64,000 nt of DNA, taken from assembly GCF_933775445.1 (NCBI RefSeq), contig NC_065872.1, positions 19,902,001 through 19,966,000 on the forward strand, read 5' to 3'. Under the pieces are notes generated by a model, which searched no databases, was not told the DNA's origin, and worked only from the letters and a program-made list of their open reading frames with translations. This DNA comes from Argentina anserina. Lineage: Eukaryota; Streptophyta; Magnoliopsida; Rosales; Rosaceae. Made by a program: the position numbers and the translations under genes. Numbering within the stretch: position 1 is the stretch's first letter; each line of letters opens with the position of its first letter. Shown here piece after piece: positions 3,424 through 40,500 of this stretch.

Positions 3424-4647
3424 ATGTCCGAAATATCTAAGAGAACACAAGAGCTCAAAGATCGAATTCAAGCACTTAGAGATTTAAACAACTCTTTCAC
3501 AAGTGGACCTTTAAATTTCGAAACATCTCCAAGCAATTCAATCTTAAACTCTTCACCTAGATCAGAAGAAGAGGAGGATCTTTCCTTCCCCTTCATCTTC
3601 AATTCAGACTTAGACACAATTGCGGACCGTGACATAATTCATGTTGGTGCTCCAATGGCACTTAAGAATGCATTCATTCCCACCACCCGTGACTCACCTT
3701 CATGCATTGCTTTCACTCCACCTGATGAAGCTAACTTCTCCATTCTGGTTCAATTGCTTGGGCAGCTGCCTAAGTACTCTGGTTCTTCAATGGAAGACCC
3801 TAATGTTCACCTTAGGGAGTTCTTGGACATTTGCAAGCTCCAATCAATTCATCATCTTTCTCAAGAAGGCTTGAGGTTGCTTTTGTTTCCATTTACCCTT
3901 AAGGATGATGCTAAACGTTGGTTGTACTCTTTGCCTGCTGGAATCATCACCACATGGGACGAAATGACTAGGAGGTTTTTGAAGCAATTCTTCCCTGCTC
4001 AACTCACAAAAAGACTTAGGAGGGAGATTCAAAACTTCACTCAAAAGGATGGTGATTCACTCTATGAGGCATGGGAGGAATTCCAAGAACTACAAAGGAA
4101 GTGCCCTCACCATGGTATTTCGTTGGATGACTTGGTGCAATTCTTCTATGAAGGACTCGACACCACCAATAAGAGCATGGTGGATTCGGCATGTGGCTGC
4201 ACATTCATTAACACGACCGGTCAAGAAGCTTACACCTTGATTGATGACTTGGCCGACAACAATCGCCAATTTAGTTCCAAGGAAAAGAGAGGAAGCAAGA
4301 GCCGTGGGGTGTATGATGTTGATGCAAGAAATCAGATGGCTACTTTAGAAAGGAAGCTTGACGTTCTAGTCAAGGCATTCAATGGTTCGAGCATCAACAA
4401 TCAAGCATGTGGTATTTGTTCTTTCAAAGATCACACGACTGAAAATTGTCCAAATGGTGCAATAACTGAAGAAGAGTTGAACTTTATGGGGCAACAAAGG
4501 CCTAGGTACGATCCCTACTCAAACACATACAACCCTGGACTTAGAGATCATCCAAATTTTCGTTGGAGCAACAATGCTCAACCATCCAATGCTCAAGGTC
4601 AAGGACCTCATCCTTCAGGTTTGTTTGTGAGGCCTCAGGTACCTTAA
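3424..4647 (+). pseudogene. gag: Athila gag
   Basis: Open frame of 407 codons. Residues about 110-270 form the retrotransposon gag (capsid) domain, with the WLYSLP and FFPAQ blocks and a YEAWEEF stretch. A CX2CX4HX4C zinc knuckle (CGICSFKDHTTENC) is near residue 337, as expected of a nucleocapsid. The frame ends at a TAA (4,645-4,647), but similarity continues in the same frame to about 4,970, so the stop is a mutation within a longer gag-pol frame. It would package element RNA in cytoplasmic particles. Start at 3,424 is the first ATG of the frame after the leader. Confidence 0.9.
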
Positions 4648-35079: not shown

Positions 35080-35301
35080 ACGGGCTCCCAGAGGCCCTCA
35101 CGGTTTTATTTTCGGGAGCTCAGGAGCAACTTCCCAGTAGGTCACCCATCATGGGATTACTCTGGGCCAAGAAAGCTTGACTTCAGAGTACTGAACTCAT
35201 CGAAACCAGTGAGCCCCCAAAAGGCATTGTCTTAGATGGAGGTGGGCATGTACATATAATGCATATCACCCTCTCTCCGTTTTCCGTTGTGGGATATTAC
35301 A
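35080..35301 (-). repeat. Cassandra LTR copy 1, truncated
   Basis: LTR start at 35,301 is intact; the U5 end (about 55 bp with the GGGATGTGACA terminus) is missing at the left. Its 5S box C (ATGGGTGACCTACTGGGAAGT) is the best preserved in the array. An internal segment with a mutated primer site (35,302-35,374) follows. Confidence 0.9.
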
Positions 35302-35374
35302 ACCCTCCCATCTCAAGAGTCCGACATCTTCATTGGCACACTCGCACCACAAGGCAGAGTGGCTCTAATACCGT

Positions 35375-35944
35375 TTGACAGACTCCGCCCAAAATTCTTA
35401 GGTAAGTCCAACGGAGATCATCCCAAATGAAGTTTTACGAAAGTTGTAGTATAACCTCCCTTTTTAATGAACAACCCTTTTCTAATCAAGCGGTAATACT
35501 TTTTTTTAATTATCTATAACCAAACAAAACTCACATCCTTATTTCCATAATCATAACAGCTCCCAATTCCATCATAACTGTAATAATCAAAATCACTAAA
35601 CTTATCAACCAGAAAACTTGAAAGTACCTTCAAGAGTTCTTACAATCTTTCTTCAGAAGGACAAAAGTATTACCGGCAAGATAATAAACCAAGATAGATA
35701 ATTGATAGGTTGAAATCAAATTCTAAAGTCAACACCCCATTTCAGCAAACCAAAATATAGCTAAATCATTCATATCGATATAGCTCAAATCTAGACTCGC
35801 ATGCAAGTATCCAACACCCAATTGCCCAAACTCACATTGAATCAAAAACAACGAAAGCTATCAATCATCGATTTGAAATCACCCAGTACTCTCAAAACAC
35901 AAACTAGAAAGCAACCTGATCCGAGGGGTGAACCAGGCTCTCAT
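35375..35944 (-). repeat. Spacer A, first copy of non-Cassandra segment
   Basis: About 570 bp repeated at 37,332-37,939 and in part at 38,723-39,010. Shared words include tctaatcaagcggtaata and catccttatttccataatca. On the minus strand its end reads GGGTTCTGTCA-like and joins directly to the Cassandra primer site (AATGGTATCAGAG). Its start carries a second primer-site-like word TTGGTATGAGAGCC right after the U6 segment. It lacks about 40 bp present in spacer B near 35,645. Origin unknown. Confidence 0.8.
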
Positions 35945-36031
35945 ACCAATTCTAGATTTATGTGTGTCATTCTTGCGCATGGGTCATGCTAATCTTCTAT
36001 GTATCATTCCAATTTTATCGGATGTCCCCGA
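35945..36031 (-). ncRNA. U6 snRNA-derived segment, copy A (pseudogene)
   Basis: Minus strand matches plant U6 from about nt 7 to nt 92: GGGGACATCCGATAAAATTGG, GAAGATTAGCATG (with the conserved AGC) and TGCGCAAG are clear. The 5' terminal stem (GUCCCU) is missing and the catalytic ACAGAGA box reads ACATAGA, so it is not a working snRNA. It is joined upstream to the end of Cassandra LTR copy 2 (GTGACAATTGGG) and downstream to a TTGGTATGAGAGCC word. More diverged than copy B. Confidence 0.9.
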
Positions 36032-36037
36032 CCCAAT

Positions 36038-36303
36038 TGTCACATCCCGAGACCAGCTCCATCCTAATACGATATTGTTTTCTTTGGGCGCTCTCCCAGA
36101 GGCCCTCACCTTGTTTCTAGGAGCTCACGAGGAACTTCCTAGTAGGTCACCTATCTTGGGATTGTTGTGGGCCAAGCAAGCTTAACTTCAGAGTTCCCAA
36201 ATCATTGAAGCCAATAAGCCCCTAAAAGGCCTCGTGTTAGATGGAGGTGGGCATGTACATATAAGACACATCACTCCTCCGTTGGCTGATGTCGGATATT
36301 ACA
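36038..36303 (-). repeat. Cassandra LTR copy 2
   Basis: 266 bp, complete termini. Its U5 end joins the U6-derived segment rather than a normal primer site. The USE-like word near the start is mutated (CCGACATCAG). Confidence 0.95.
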
Positions 36304-36378
36304 ATCGACCCCTCTCAGGAGTTCGACGTCCTTGTCGGCACACTTGCACCACATGGCAGAGTGACTTTGATACTAAAT
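36304..36378 (-). repeat. Cassandra internal segment
   Basis: 75 bp between LTR copies 2 and 3. The primer site is degraded (minus TAGTATCAAAGT); the polypurine tract CTGAGAGGGGTCGAT is intact. Confidence 0.9.
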
Positions 36379-36583
36379 TGTCACATCCCGGGACCGGCTC
36401 CGCCATAACACGATATTATCCGCTTTTGGCACTCTCCCAAAGTGCTCTATACAAGGGTAGAATCAATTAGGCCCTCACGACATGAGTAACTTCCCAATAG
36501 GTCACCCATCTTGGGATTGCTCTTGGCCAAACAATCTTAGCTACACATCACCCCCTCTATGTTGGCCGATGTGAGATATTACA
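36379..36583 (-). repeat. Cassandra LTR copy 3, internally deleted
   Basis: 205 bp. Termini present; about 100 bp upstream of the 5S box A is missing (cttagct joined to acacatcac), and about 30 bp of unrelated sequence replaces part of the U5 side near 36,440. Confidence 0.9.
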
Positions 36584-36658
36584 ATCCACCCCTCTAAAGA
36601 GTTTGACGTCCTCGTCGGCACACTCGCACCACACGGCAGAGTAGCTCTGATACCAAAT
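36584..36658 (-). repeat. Cassandra internal segment
   Basis: 75 bp with intact primer site TGGTATCAGAGC (plus-strand gctctgatacca at 36,644-36,655). Confidence 0.92.
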
Positions 36659-36926
36659 TGTCACATCCCAGGACCGGCTCCGCCGTAACACGATATTGTC
36701 TGCTTTAGATACTCTCCTAGAGGCCTAGGGTTTTGTTTCTGGGAGATCACAAGCAACTTCCCAGTAGGTCACCTATCATAGGATTGCTTTGGACCAACCA
36801 AGCTTAACTTCGGAATTCCCAACTCATCGAAGCCAGTGAGTCCCAAAATGCCTCGTGTTAGATGCAGGTGAGCATGTACATATAATACACATCACCCCTC
36901 TCTGTTGGTTGATGTGGGATATTACC
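36659..36926 (-). repeat. Cassandra LTR copy 4
   Basis: 268 bp. The USE-like word has one mismatch (TCCCACATCA). The terminal TGTAAT is changed to GGTAAT. Confidence 0.93.
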
Positions 36927-37001
36927 ATCTACCCCTGTTAGGAGTCCGACGTCTTCGTCAGCACACTCGCACCACACGGCAAGGTAGATCTGATACCAAA
37001 T
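36927..37001 (-). repeat. Cassandra internal segment
   Basis: 75 bp. Primer site TGGTATCAGATC (one change). Polypurine tract degraded. Confidence 0.9.
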
Positions 37002-37257
37002 TATCACATCCTGGGAACTACTCCGCCATAACACAATATTGTCCATTTTAGGCGCTCTACCAGAGGCCCTCACGGTTTTGTTTCTTGGAGCTCACGAGCA
37101 ACTTCCCAGTAGCTCAACCATCCTATGATTGTTCTGGGCCAAGCAAGCTTAACTTTGGAGTTCCCAACTCATCGAAGCCAGTGAGCCCCTAAAAGGCCTC
37201 GTGTTAGATGAAGGTAGACATATCACTCCCTCTCCGTTGGCCGAAGTGGATATTATA
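37002..37257 (-). repeat. Cassandra LTR copy 5
   Basis: 256 bp. Both termini carry point changes (GTGATA and TATAAT). An 11-12 bp loss lies near the TATA region. Confidence 0.92.
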
Positions 37258-37331
37258 ATCCACCACTCTCAAGAGTTCGACGTCCTCGTCAGGACACTCG
37301 CACCACATGGCAGAGTGCCTCTGATACCATT
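37258..37331 (-). repeat. Cassandra internal segment, joined to spacer B
   Basis: Primer site TGGTATCAGAGG near its end; beyond it lies spacer B (GTTCTGTCA) instead of a Cassandra LTR. Confidence 0.88.
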
Positions 37332-37939
37332 TGACAGAACCCACTCCAAATTCTTAGGTAAGTCCTGCGAGGATCATCCCAAAGGAACTTTTACGAAAAT
37401 TTTAGTATCACATCACTTTTTAATGAACAACCTTTTTTCTAATCAAGCGGTAATATTTTTTTTTTCATCTATAACCAAACAATACTCACATCCTTATTTC
37501 CATAATCATAACATTCCTCAATTCCATCATAACTGTAATCATCAAAATCAGTCAACTTATCAATCACAAAACCCGAAAGTACTTTCAAGAGTTCTTACCG
37601 GAAAAGCCTTATATTATAGCTTGAAATCATAAAAACAATAATCTTTCTGCAGAAGGACAAAAGTATTAGTGGCAAGATATAAACCAAGATAGATAATTGA
37701 TAGATTGAATTCAGATTTTAAAGTCAAGACCCCATTTCAACAAACCAAAATATAGCTAAATCATTCATACCGATATAGCTCAACTCCAAACTCGCATGCA
37801 GGTATCCAACACCCAATCGCTCAAACTCCGATTGAACAAAAAACAATGAAAGCTATCAATCATCGATTTGAAATCACCTAGTACTCCTAAAACACAAACT
37901 AGAAAGCAACTTGATCCGAAGGGTGAACCAGGCTCTCAT
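37332..37939 (-). repeat. Spacer B, second copy of non-Cassandra segment
   Basis: Longest of the three spacer copies and closest to full length. On the minus strand: TTGGTATGAGAGCC word, an AT-rich 430 bp, ctgcag-type acceptor-like sequence near 37,649, then GGTAAGAACTC (donor-like) near 37,590, and GGGTTCTGTCA at its end. It matches spacer A over its whole length. Confidence 0.8.
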
Positions 37940-38026
37940 ACCAATTCTAGATTTTTGCGTGTCATCCTTGCGCATGGGCCATGCTAATCTTCTTTGTATT
38001 GTTCCAATTTTATCGGATGTCCCCGA
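37940..38026 (-). ncRNA. U6 snRNA-derived segment, copy B (pseudogene)
   Basis: Minus strand matches plant U6 from about nt 7 to nt 92 with few changes: GGGGACATCCGATAAAATTGG, GAAGATTAGCATGG, GCGCAAGGATGACACGC. The 5' terminal hexamer is gone and ACAGAGA reads ACAAAGA. At the 3' side U6 homology runs through AAATC.AGAA.TGGT, and TGGT is also the start of the primer-site-like word TGGTATGAGAGCC. The upstream neighbour is the Cassandra LTR end (GTGACAATTTGG). Confidence 0.93.
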
Positions 38027-38032
38027 CCAAAT

Positions 38033-38300
38033 TGTCACATCCTGGGACCGGTTCTGCCCTAACACGATATTATCTGCTTTGGGCGCTCTCCCATAGGCCC
38101 TCAGGTTTTGTTTCTAGGAGCTCACGAGCAACTTCCAAGTAGATCACCTATCTTGGGATTGCTCTGGGCCAAGCAAGCTTAACTTCAGAGTTCCCAACTC
38201 ATCGAAGCCAGTAAGCCCCCAAAAGGCCTCGTGTTAGATGGAGGTGGGCATATACATAGAAGGCACATCCCTCTTCCGTTGGCCGATGTGGGATATTACA
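38033..38300 (-). repeat. Cassandra LTR copy 6, with intact USE
   Basis: 268 bp, complete termini. Minus strand contains the plant snRNA upstream element TCCCACATCG (38,284-38,293), then 25 nt, then TATGTATATG (38,249-38,258). Its 5S-like part covers about 38,115-38,233. Its U5 end joins the U6-derived segment (copy B). Confidence 0.95.
38115..38233 (-). ncRNA. 5S rRNA-like sequence in Cassandra LTR
   Basis: Best-positioned example of the 5S-like stretch found in every LTR copy of the array. Box A (AGTTAAGCTTGCTTGG) is almost identical to plant 5S; box C is recognisable (AGGTGATCTACTTGGAAGT) but changed in this copy. In Cassandra it is described as a Pol III-transcribable 5S RNA. Not a genomic 5S gene: the 5' 40 nt do not match. 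Confidence 0.85.
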
Positions 38301-38375
38301 ATCCACCCCTCTCAGGAGTCTGACATCCTTCTCGGCACACTTGCACCACATGGCAGAGTGACTCTGATACTAAAT
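38301..38375 (-). repeat. Cassandra internal segment
   Basis: 75 bp. Primer site TAGTATCAGAGT (two changes). Confidence 0.9.
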
Positions 38376-38647
38376 TGTCACATCCCACGACCGGCTCCGC
38401 CGTAACACGATATTGTCCGCTCTGAGCGCTCTCCCAAATACCCTCATGGTTTTGTTTCTGGGAGCTCACGAGTAACTTTTCAATAGGTCACCTATCCTGG
38501 GATTGCTCTTGGCCAAGCAAGCTTAACTTCGGAGTTTCGAACTTATCAAAGCCAGTGAGCCCTCAAAAGGCCTCGTGCTAGATGAAGGTGGGCAGGTACA
38601 TATAAGACACATCACCCCCTCTCCGTTGGCCGATGAGTGATATTACA
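38376..38647 (-). repeat. Cassandra LTR copy 7
   Basis: 272 bp, both termini intact; the USE-like word is mutated (TCACTCATCGG). It begins the array in transcription direction. Confidence 0.93.
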
Positions 38648-38722
38648 ATTCACCTCTCTCAGGAGTCTGACGTCTTCATCGGCACACTCACACCACACGA
38701 TAGAGTAGCTCTGATACCATTT
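38648..38722 (-). repeat. Cassandra internal segment, joined to spacer C
   Basis: Primer site TGGTATCAGAGC intact; beyond it lies spacer C (GGGTTCTATCA) rather than an LTR. Confidence 0.88.
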
Positions 38723-39010
38723 TGATAGAACCCGCCATAAATTCGGAGGTAAGTCTTGCGGGGATCATCCCAAAGGAAGTTTTACAATAACCTCCCTCGC
38801 TAATGAACTACCCTTTTCTAATCAAGCGGTAATACTTTTTTTAATTCCATCTATAACCAAACTAAACTCACATCCTTATTTCCCTAATCATAACCGCCCC
38901 CAATTCTATCATAACTGTAATCATCAAAATCACTCAACTTATCAACCACAAAACCCAAAAGTACCTACAAGAGTTCTTACCAGAGAAGCCTTATATTGCA
39001 GCTTGAAATT
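38723..39010 (-). repeat. Spacer C, partial third copy
   Basis: Matches the 3' half (minus orientation) of spacers A and B up to gccttatattgcagcttgaaat, then diverges into unique sequence. On the minus strand the unique part runs as an open frame (38,942-39,184) through a GGTAAGAACTC donor-like site, so spacer C may be closest to the original source locus. Confidence 0.7.
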
Positions 39011-39417
39011 AGAATCAATAGGAAGGAGTGATACAACTCGCCAAAAATGCCCAATGCCAAACTCGAACAAAACCCCACATGTTGGTTGGCGTATTAATGG
39101 CCAGGCTCTCCAGGAGCCCCTCATCAAACTAATCCGGAATATTCTTTCATCTTTTTGATTCTCATTGCATCCCGTCACCACCACAAATTGATAGAGAAGG
39201 AAAAGAGGTTATGAACGCCACCAATTTGCCCCCAAGGCCTGGCCGGAGGACAGAGGATGTGTCGCGCCTCGTTGTTTTAGTACCGCTCGACACTGAGGTC
39301 TGGTTCCGTTCATATCCCCTCTCTCTCTTTTTCTTCTCATTCTAACTCAAACCTTTTATAATCTTGAATCAAATCGTCGGTTTAAAATATCGAATGGTCT
39401 AGATGAAACCAACATAA
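39011..39417. other. Unique sequence beside array; no gene recognised
   Basis: Includes the start of an 80-codon minus frame (ATG at 39,184) with no domain I recognise and a CT-rich stretch at 39,317-39,340. Confidence 0.4.
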
Positions 39418-40500
39418 AACATGCCGATTTGCACCTCAAACTTGGTCTTAATTTTCAATTTGCACCTCGAACTTGCATTTGAGTCAATTTACCTCCTAAA
39501 ATTGGTAAAAATTGCCGATTTATACACTGAACTTGCATTTGAGTCAATTTACCTCCTAAACTTGGTAAAAATTACCGATTTGTACCCTATCCGTTAAATT
39601 TAATGTTTTCAATCCAATTTTAAGTCACATGTCATGCATTTAAGGGGCAGTATTGTCATTATATATTTATTCATATTTAATAATGAAATAAATTAATAAA
39701 ATTACTTAAGAGGAACACTTGCTACAATGTTTGTTTTTTCGAAACATGTTATTGATTTATATATTTATTATTTTATGTGATATGGTATGTTAAAAGATAT
39801 TAGAAAAATATAAATAAATAAATACATTGAAAATTCAAAATCAATGTGTGTTCCGAGAGAATTACTATTCTACCATTGTGTGTGTCTTAGTCTTATTAGG
39901 TTTCATGTTAGAGATAGATTCGCATCTCTGTAATAGATTAGGACTCTGAATCCTACGAGATTGTGGTTATGTAATGCCTATATATTGGCCTCATTATCAA
40001 TCAATAAATGATTACGTTCTGTTCTATTACGTCGTTATTAATTCTCATTTTGTTTCTCCTCCAACAATGTGTACATATAAAAATATATTTATACACAACA
40101 CACTATATTTGAATTGGTGGGTATGTTGAATATATAATTCAAAATAGGGTTTAGTATATAGAAAAAAATGTAAATAAATAATTTGATTAACAAAATAATC
40201 CTTATTTTAAAGAATATTTTTATTTGTTTTTAAGAAAAATATAAATAGAAAATGACAACATTACCCCTCATGTGCATGACATATGATGCAAAATTGGATA
40301 TAAACAGTTAAAGTTAATGGATGGGGTGCAAATCGGTAATTTTTACCAAATTTAGGAGGTAAATTGACTCAAATACAAGTTCGGGGAGTAAATCGGCAAT
40401 TTTTACCAAGTTTAGGAGGTAAATTGACTCAAATACAAGTTCGGGGTGCAAATTGACAATTTCAGCCAAATTTGAGGTGTATTTTGGCAATTTTGCCTTA
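39418..40500. mobile_element. Long inverted-repeat element
   Basis: Left arm about 39,418-39,610 and right arm about 40,300-40,500 are inverted copies. Within each arm, words such as tttgagtcaatttacctcct and aattgccgattt occur twice at about 60-bp spacing. The AT-rich centre holds a solo Copia LTR. Foldback or MULE-like non-autonomous element; TSD not identified, so class unassigned. Confidence 0.65.
39849..40066 (+). mobile_element. Solo Copia LTR
   Basis: 218 bp from TGTTCCGAGAG to CTCCTCCAACA, with a perfect 5-bp TSD atgtg (39,844-39,848 and 40,067-40,071). TATA-like tatatattgg lies at 39,980-39,989. Related to the LTRs at 44,514 and 48,273 (shared rattaggactctgaatccta-type core). Nested inside the inverted-repeat element. 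Confidence 0.92.

What the first reader, a model, noticed from the sequence alone, without database searches (positions are those of the whole stretch)
37940..38300. U6 snRNA sequence fused to a Cassandra LTR at the primer-binding-site junction
Seen: on the minus strand a complete Cassandra LTR (38,033-38,300) ends GTGACAATTTGG and continues directly as TCGGGGACATCCGATAAAATT, U6 from about nt 7. The U6 part runs to about nt 92 (AGAATTGGT) and then becomes the primer-site-like TGGTATGAGAGCC. So U6 replaces or precedes the primer site, with TGG/TGGT shared at both joints. Known: U6 chimeras form by template switching during human L1 retrotransposition. Inference: reverse transcriptase switched between Cassandra RNA and U6 RNA at the PBS, giving a 5S-plus-U6 chimeric retroelement. 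I know of no description of this for Cassandra, but cannot search.
Basis: partly seen in the sequence, partly recalled or inferred. Interest (0 to 1): 0.88.

Follow-up and report, generated by a model that had tools for sequence, protein, structure and literature searches.

The report
U6 RNA copy between two retrotransposons
In a plant genome, a decayed copy of a splicing RNA (U6) sits where pieces of two unrelated retrotransposons were joined at the spot where copying of such elements begins, a rare footprint that probably dates from faulty reverse transcription and was later duplicated in place, with no sign that it jumps as a unit.

Summary
On the minus strand a complete Cassandra LTR (38,033-38,300) runs into U6 nt 7-93 (38,026-37,940; Rfam 75.9 bits), which runs into a tRNA-Met-type primer-binding site (PBS). 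A diverged second copy lies at 36,303-35,644. So it is a three-way joint, Cassandra | U6 | X, with both breaks at PBS edges. A genome-wide exact pattern matches only these two joints; they are tandem duplicates of one event (90% identical), so a mobile 5S-plus-U6 element is not supported. A second, older U6-X fusion lies on C6: inverted U6 nt 44-100 beside X, cut in or near its PBS. Best explanation (0.5): template switching or mis-priming during LTR-element reverse transcription, since a 3'-ACCA end at a PBS can pair with UGGU in U6. A U6 retrocopy landing in an existing Cassandra-X recombinant is not excluded: 8 of 27 non-intact U6 loci here have flanking repeats scoring 7 or more, but these two score 5 and 6, within chance. 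New variant of a known kind.

The parts
38033..38300 (-). Cassandra LTR directly 5' of the U6 joint (copy A), 268 bp, TGTAATATCCCACATCGG...GATGTGACA
   Evidence: 5S-derived part at 38193-38123, 79% to the genome's 5S gene
38027..38032 (-). ATTTGG: Cassandra spacer plus the first bases of its primer-binding site, then broken
   Evidence: other LTR ends read ATTTGGTATCAGAG or close variants
37940..38026 (-). U6 snRNA pseudogene, nt 7-93 by alignment, sense to the elements (copy A)
37932..37943 (-). primer-binding site of element X (TGGTATGAGAGC, one mismatch to the tRNA-Met type); shares TGGT with the U6 match
37624..37939 (-). first ~320 bp of the interior of LTR element X (82% to C7:506491-506817)
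36038..36303 (-). Cassandra LTR 5' of the U6 joint (copy B)
35945..36031 (-). U6 snRNA pseudogene, nt 7-93 (copy B)
35644..35948 (-). X primer-binding site and start of interior (copy B)
35085..38647 (-). Cassandra tandem array: seven full or partial LTRs with PBS and short interiors
37336..37620 (-). sequence Y (copy A), joined directly to the PBS edge of a Cassandra interior; copies at 38727-38997 and 35392-35643; no match to this part elsewhere in the genome

Best explanation
One old event joined three sequences of different origin at primer-binding-site edges: the LTR of the 5S-bearing TRIM Cassandra, U6 snRNA, and the interior of an unrelated LTR retrotransposon X. Inferred mechanism: inside a retrotransposon particle that also held U6 RNA, minus-strand DNA (or the tRNA primer) whose 3' end at the PBS reads ...ACCA paired with UGGU near the 3' end of U6. 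Reverse transcriptase copied U6 back to about nt 7-8 and then switched to Cassandra RNA at its U5/PBS edge. (Ligation of U6 to the element RNA before copying, discussed for LINE chimeras, would leave the same product.) The product was fixed, decayed, and later copied with the Cassandra array by DNA-level tandem duplication. Shown: the three parts, the positions of both joints, one locus with tandem duplication, decay of U6. Inferred: that the joining happened during reverse transcription, and in what order.
For: Both breaks fall at a PBS edge, one in each of two unrelated elements. The break in X lies within a base or two of where full-length minus-strand DNA ends (established retroelement biology, recalled), and TGGT is shared by U6 and the PBS. 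The genome has 2,378 exact PBS 12-mers (reversed control 5) and 4,065 with up to one mismatch (control 305); 10 bp either side of their 5' edge is about 0.03% of the genome, so 26 independent non-intact U6 loci would meet one about 0.009 times (my arithmetic). X was found at three loci (all candidates scored); two carry U6 where X is cut at or near its PBS, sense on C1 and inverted on C6, and the third, C7, has its own LTR there and no U6. U6 copies A and B share 3 changes and have 3 and 5 of their own, so U6 entered nearly intact before the duplication. From papers: U6 is enriched over U1/U2 in retroviral particles (PMC3185662, passage; PMC4997597 table); host RNAs can be patched into retroviral recombinants through microhomology (PMC4997597, passages); template switching is argued to make complex LTR elements in grasses (PMC1950507, abstract and one section).
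Against: Only one event of this exact form was found (an exact pattern, so diverged joints would be missed). No flanking duplication of a whole composite insertion could be defined, because the array is rearranged. The repeats TTGGT (copy A) and AATTGG (copy B) at the two U6 edges could be a weak target-site duplication (scores 5 and 6; reached by 209 and 69 of 700 control pairs). U6 retroposition with flanking repeats happens in this genome (8 of 27 loci score >=7). The U6-to-Cassandra joint has at most one base of overlap. No paper on U6 in plant retrotransposon particles turned up in the searches made. On C6 the 12 bp between U6 and the solid X homology keep only traces of the PBS (10 of 20 positions against C7), and the PBS scan did not flag that locus.
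Confidence: 0.5

Rival explanations
1. Two steps: Cassandra and X first recombined at their shared PBS (as DNA or during reverse transcription); later a U6 retrocopy, truncated at both ends, was inserted into that PBS by target-primed reverse transcription or break repair, leaving a 5-7 bp duplication (TTTGGT ... AATTGGT).
For: 8 of 27 non-intact U6 loci in this genome have flanking repeats scoring >=7, against 22 of 700 control pairs. In L096 and L097 the repeat overlaps U6 itself, as if the broken target had primed inside U6, just as ACCA/UGGU would here. PBS-edge joints are visible elsewhere in the array (Y joined to the PBS of a Cassandra interior at 38719, 37329, 35373).
Against: The repeats at these two copies are within chance (scores 5 and 6). 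The site hit is exactly the PBS edge. No Cassandra-X joint without U6 is among the X places found (all candidates scored, 40 of 70 scored). The C6 U6-X fusion would be a second coincidence.
Confidence: 0.33
2. DNA-level rearrangement only: a pre-existing U6 pseudogene was brought between Cassandra and X pieces by end joining or unequal exchange in a rearranging tandem array.
For: The locus is a rearranged tandem array. The X|Y joint is absent from copy C and so was probably made by the tandem duplication, with ATTTC shared at the break. Partial LTRs are present.
Against: It requires breaks at both U6 edges that by chance coincide with PBS edges of two different element families.
Confidence: 0.13
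3. A mobile chimeric 5S-plus-U6 element that spread as a family.
For: None beyond the structure itself.
Against: Two copies found, in tandem at one locus.
Confidence: 0.02

Closest known systems
U6/LINE-1 chimeric insertions (mammals)
   Same: U6 in sense at the 5' side of a retroelement piece, explained by template switching or RNA ligation (PMC13174262, abstract and passages)
   Different: There U6 is consistently full-length, the partner is a LINE, and target-site duplications flank the insertion; here U6 is trimmed at both ends and lies between two LTR elements at PBS edges
Template-switch complex LTR retrotransposons of grasses (Sabot and Schulman)
   Same: Fusion of LTR-element RNAs proposed to occur during reverse transcription (PMC1950507, abstract and section 4)
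   Different: Those fuse similar elements through R regions and keep flanking duplications; here the families are unrelated, the joint is the PBS, and a host snRNA lies in between
Host-RNA patches in retroviral recombinants (e.g. 7SL)
   Same: An abundant packaged host RNA used as a third template between non-homologous ends (PMC4997597, passages)
   Different: Retroviruses and 7SL, one an experimental recombinant; here a plant LTR element and U6, seen as a genomic footprint
TRIMp3 elements Cassandra, Helenus, Ajax
   Same: LTR elements bearing a small-RNA-gene sequence (PMC10886601, abstract and discussion)
   Different: There the small-RNA sequence is inside the LTR and spreads as a family; here U6 is outside the LTR and was found at one locus
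Cassandra tandem arrays (Kalendar et al. 2020)
   Same: LTR-interior-LTR arrays (PMC7215508, abstract and passages)
   Different: No foreign snRNA: 'snRNA' and 'chimer' occur 0 times in that paper's main text

Membership tests
Cassandra TRIM | 5S rRNA-derived sequence in the LTR | tested here: met
   7 matches to the genome's own 5S gene, 77-83% over 53-71 nt, one in each of the 7 array LTRs or LTR parts; Rfam 5S model not reached at E<=0.1
Cassandra TRIM | short LTRs and a methionine PBS after the LTR | tested here: met
   LTR 268 bp; ATTTGGTATCAGAG or close variants after most array LTR ends; Cassandras carry a methionine PBS, Rosaceae median element 665 bp (PMC10853983, passages)
Cassandra TRIM | Cassandra interior downstream of this particular LTR | tested here: not met
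   U6, then the interior of X, follows LTR 38033-38300
U6 snRNA gene (functional) | intact ACAGAGA box and full length | tested here: not met
   nt 39 changed in both copies, nt 1-6 and the 3' end missing
LINE-type U6 retrocopy | target-site duplication beyond chance | tested here: inconclusive
   scores 5 and 6, where 209 and 69 of 700 controls reach as much
U6/LINE chimera | partner is a LINE | tested here: not met
   partner X has two LTRs on C7 and a PBS
mobile chimeric element | independent dispersed insertions with the same joints | tested here: not met
   2 tandem copies found
reverse-transcription template-switch product | composite flanked by one target-site duplication | not testable with these tools
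   outer boundaries lost in the rearranged array; no relatives' genomes available

The most novel reading that the evidence does not exclude
The PBS end of LTR-retrotransposon cDNA is a recurrent capture point for U6 RNA in plants: particles of the X family carried U6, and on two independent occasions (C1 sense, C6 inverted) cDNA ending at the PBS was joined to U6 before integration or repair. Natural U6-PBS joints would then be a fossil record of snRNA packaging by plant LTR elements.
Probability: 0.25. Interest if true: 0.65.

Novelty: new variant of a known kind. Interest (0 to 1): 0.42.

Why it matters
If the joints arose during reverse transcription, they show that a plant LTR element had U6 RNA within reach of its reverse transcriptase, as animal retroviruses do, and that the PBS end of its cDNA can pick up host RNA. 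That would give a searchable footprint (snRNA directly abutting TGGTATCAGAGC) for host-RNA packaging in plants. If it is only a U6 retrocopy that fell on a recombinant PBS, it is a curiosity.

Tried and rejected
A mobile 5S-plus-U6 family: rejected for this genome, two tandem copies found. Assembly error: unlikely, since both copies show the same joints at 90% identity. Sequence Y as the LTR of X: suggested by its place before a PBS and by the order of the array, but Y is not similar to the C7 LTR (alignment score 406, shuffled mean 440) and its part next to the PBS occurs nowhere else (the first 88 bases of that query, further upstream, recur twice on C5 at 80-81%), so left open. X's LTR to the left of the inverted U6 on C6: not found (the best match of that flank to the C7 stretch is 41 bp at 78%, E 0.002, outside the C7 LTR; C6 flank against C7 LTR 364, shuffled mean 407). 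Literature searches: 'Cassandra, U6 snRNA, retrotransposon' (1 irrelevant paper); 'terminal-repeat retrotransposons in miniature, 5S rRNA, Cassandra' (5); 'U6 snRNA, template switching, LTR retrotransposon, plant' (2); 'U6 snRNA, chimeric, retropseudogene' (6); 'U6 snRNA, primer binding site, LTR, packaged' (6); 'snRNA, TRIM, LTR retrotransposon, small RNA gene-derived', 3 of 4 terms (397, 10 listed); 'U6 snRNA, retroposition, plants, pseudogenes, target site duplication' (1); 'spliceosomal RNA, LTR retrotransposon, chimeric, tRNA primer', 3 of 4 terms (25, 10 listed). No title or abstract start listed there reports U6 at a PBS of a plant LTR element; most subscription journals and all preprints are outside that library.

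Limits of the genome searches: one search scored 48 of 27,286 candidates, 40 of 73, 40 of 70; searches scored all theirs. Very common words are skipped, so counts are lower bounds.

Full report
What is there. The window lies in a 237-Mb genome (G000, contig C1:19902001-19966000). Seven large contigs of 24-37 Mb were met, which from recall fits a strawberry-like karyotype; no tool names the species. On the minus strand, 38,647-35,085 is a Cassandra tandem array with seven full or partial LTRs. Each carries a stretch within nt ~38-110 of the genome's own 5S gene at 77-83%, although Rfam's 5S model reports nothing there at E<=0.1. LTR 38,300-38,033 ends GATGTGACA, is followed by ATTTGG, and then, instead of TATCAGAGCC, by U6 from nt 7. 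U6 runs to nt 93 in the alignment and passes into TGGTATGAGAGCC. The same is found at 36,303-35,937. Rfam gives 75.9 and 66.6 bits for U6 (cut-off 44).

What follows the PBS. A search of the genome with U6 end, PBS and downstream sequence (15 of 15 candidates scored) found, besides U6 copies and the window itself, one place on C7 (82% from the PBS on, 506,491-506,817) and one on C6 (69%, 35,247,977-35,248,247). On C7 the PBS is preceded by an 862-bp sequence, TGTGAGCC...GGTGTGACA, that recurs about 3.7 kb further on (85% over 901 aligned positions), so C7 holds an LTR retrotransposon. I call it X. In C7:502200-506420 no closed reading frame exceeds 140 codons from stop to stop. It carries no U6 at its PBS. 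So the joint in the window is between three unrelated things: Cassandra LTR, U6, and X cut at its PBS.

How the joints look. X on C7 reads ACTTGGTATCAG at the PBS edge; the window reads GAATTGGTATGAG. If TTGGT belongs to X, U6 ends near nt 88 without the A89T change that both copies would otherwise need. TGGT is common to U6 (nt 90-93) and to the PBS. At the other joint Cassandra keeps ATTTGG, with one T that may belong to either side. An exact, slightly degenerate pattern for the U6 3' part followed within 30 bases by a PBS matches only the two window copies (reversed control 0); more diverged joints would escape it.

One event, then duplication. Copies A and B are 90.3% identical over 659 aligned positions. 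Their U6 parts share 3 differences from the intact gene and have 3 and 5 of their own, including different changes at nt 39 in the ACAGAGA box. The X|Y joint found in A (and shortened in B) is absent from copy C at ~39,020, where Y continues upstream into other sequence; I infer that this joint was made by tandem duplication of an older order Y-PBS-Cassandra-...-Cassandra LTR-U6-PBS-X. The U6 fusion is therefore most simply one event, copied in place.

A second U6-X fusion. On C6 the X homology starts at L031:1499 (L031:1381-2000 position 119), and an inverted U6 fragment (nt 44-100, 85%) ends 12 bp before it; cmscan also sees it (20.4 bits, below the cut-off of 44; E 0.0088). Lined up with C7 without gaps, the break falls inside the PBS; the bases between keep only traces of it (10 of 20 positions). 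No similarity to the C7 LTR was found on the far side of U6. Orientation and U6 end points differ from C1, so I take it as an independent, older event. Opposite orientation is what twin priming gives in LINE chimeras (PMC13174262, passage), so a LINE-type enzyme is possible there.

How unusual. Two searches list 34 U6-like places: 27 by Rfam (capped at 48 scored candidates) and 28 by DNA, 21 in common. Seven are intact and identical; I examined the flanks of the other 27, with about 65-100 bp on either side for six of them (L096-L101) and 150 bp for the rest. A PBS-like site with up to 2 mismatches was flagged at four: the two window copies at the U6 edge, and two 2-mismatch sites beside L009 and L020 that are not at a recognised element. 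C6 (L031) was not flagged. The genome has 2,378 exact TGGTATCAGAGC sites against 5 for the reversed pattern, and 4,065 against 305 with up to one mismatch (the X PBS of the window is of the one-mismatch kind). Counting the tandem pair once, 26 loci falling at random within 10 bp of a 5' PBS edge are expected about 0.009 times (my arithmetic).

Against my reading. Of the 27 loci, 8 have flanking direct repeats scoring >=7 (L010, L014, L015, L019, L022, L096, L097, L100), against 22 of 700 control pairs, so U6 is retroposed here with target-site duplications, some overlapping U6 itself (L096, L097). The window copies score 5 and 6, reached by 209 and 69 of 700 controls: they neither show nor exclude a short duplication. 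The two-step rival (Cassandra-X recombination at the PBS, then U6 inserted there) therefore stays open at about one third. Its weakness is that no Cassandra-X joint without U6 is among the X places found and that U6 would have had to hit the PBS edge exactly, with a second such coincidence on C6.

What is known. U6 chimeras with LINE-1 are well described in mammals (PMC13174262, abstract and passages). U6 is enriched in retroviral particles (PMC3185662, passage; PMC4997597, passages and table). Template switching has been argued for complex LTR elements of grasses (PMC1950507, abstract and section 4). Small-RNA-bearing TRIMs are known with 5S or tRNA sequences inside the LTR (PMC10886601, abstract and discussion). 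A U6-at-PBS joint between two LTR families did not turn up in the searches listed under Tried and rejected. It is a new variant of known chimera formation, not a new kind of element.

Noticed in passing
L096 (C2:28074678), L097 (C5:27318099), L099 (C3:1619394), L100 (C2:22175103): Short U6 5' fragments ending at nt 36-44. Flanking repeats score 11, 12, 6 and 9 (6 is within chance); in L096 and L097 the repeat overlaps the U6 end, as if the target DNA had primed inside U6 near GATACAGAG.
   Followed up: partly
L010 (C4:17948144-17948246): U6 nt 8-95 at 97% with an 8-bp flanking repeat CAGGCGGG, lying in what looks like coding sequence (a C2-domain gene by eye, recalled, not tested).
   Followed up: no
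L056 (C3:30006532-30006896): Cassandra LTR running into an inverted Cassandra LTR with the break inside the PBS (ATTTGGTATC|CCTCGTGTTAG), another PBS-centred joint.
   Followed up: partly
window 38719, 37329, 35373 (minus strand): A Cassandra interior whose 5' LTR is replaced, at the PBS edge, by a sequence (Y) not found elsewhere in the genome.
   Followed up: partly
L006 (C6:15435153-15435255): U6 identical to the other intact copies, but with TCCCACATCG only 12 bp before its start and no TATA-like box between, unlike L002, where ACATCG lies about 55-60 bp upstream with a tcatatatgc box between. The Cassandra LTR start (TATCCCACATCGG) carries the same motif, which resembles the plant snRNA upstream element (recalled).
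   Followed up: no
window 39417-39692 and 40219-40494: Inverted repeat with 276-nt arms, 82% complementary, 526 nt apart, next to the array; possibly an old DNA transposon or MITE pair.
   Followed up: no
window 4012-4118: Plant snoRNA R71 (Rfam RF00097, 58 bits) on the minus strand.
   Followed up: no
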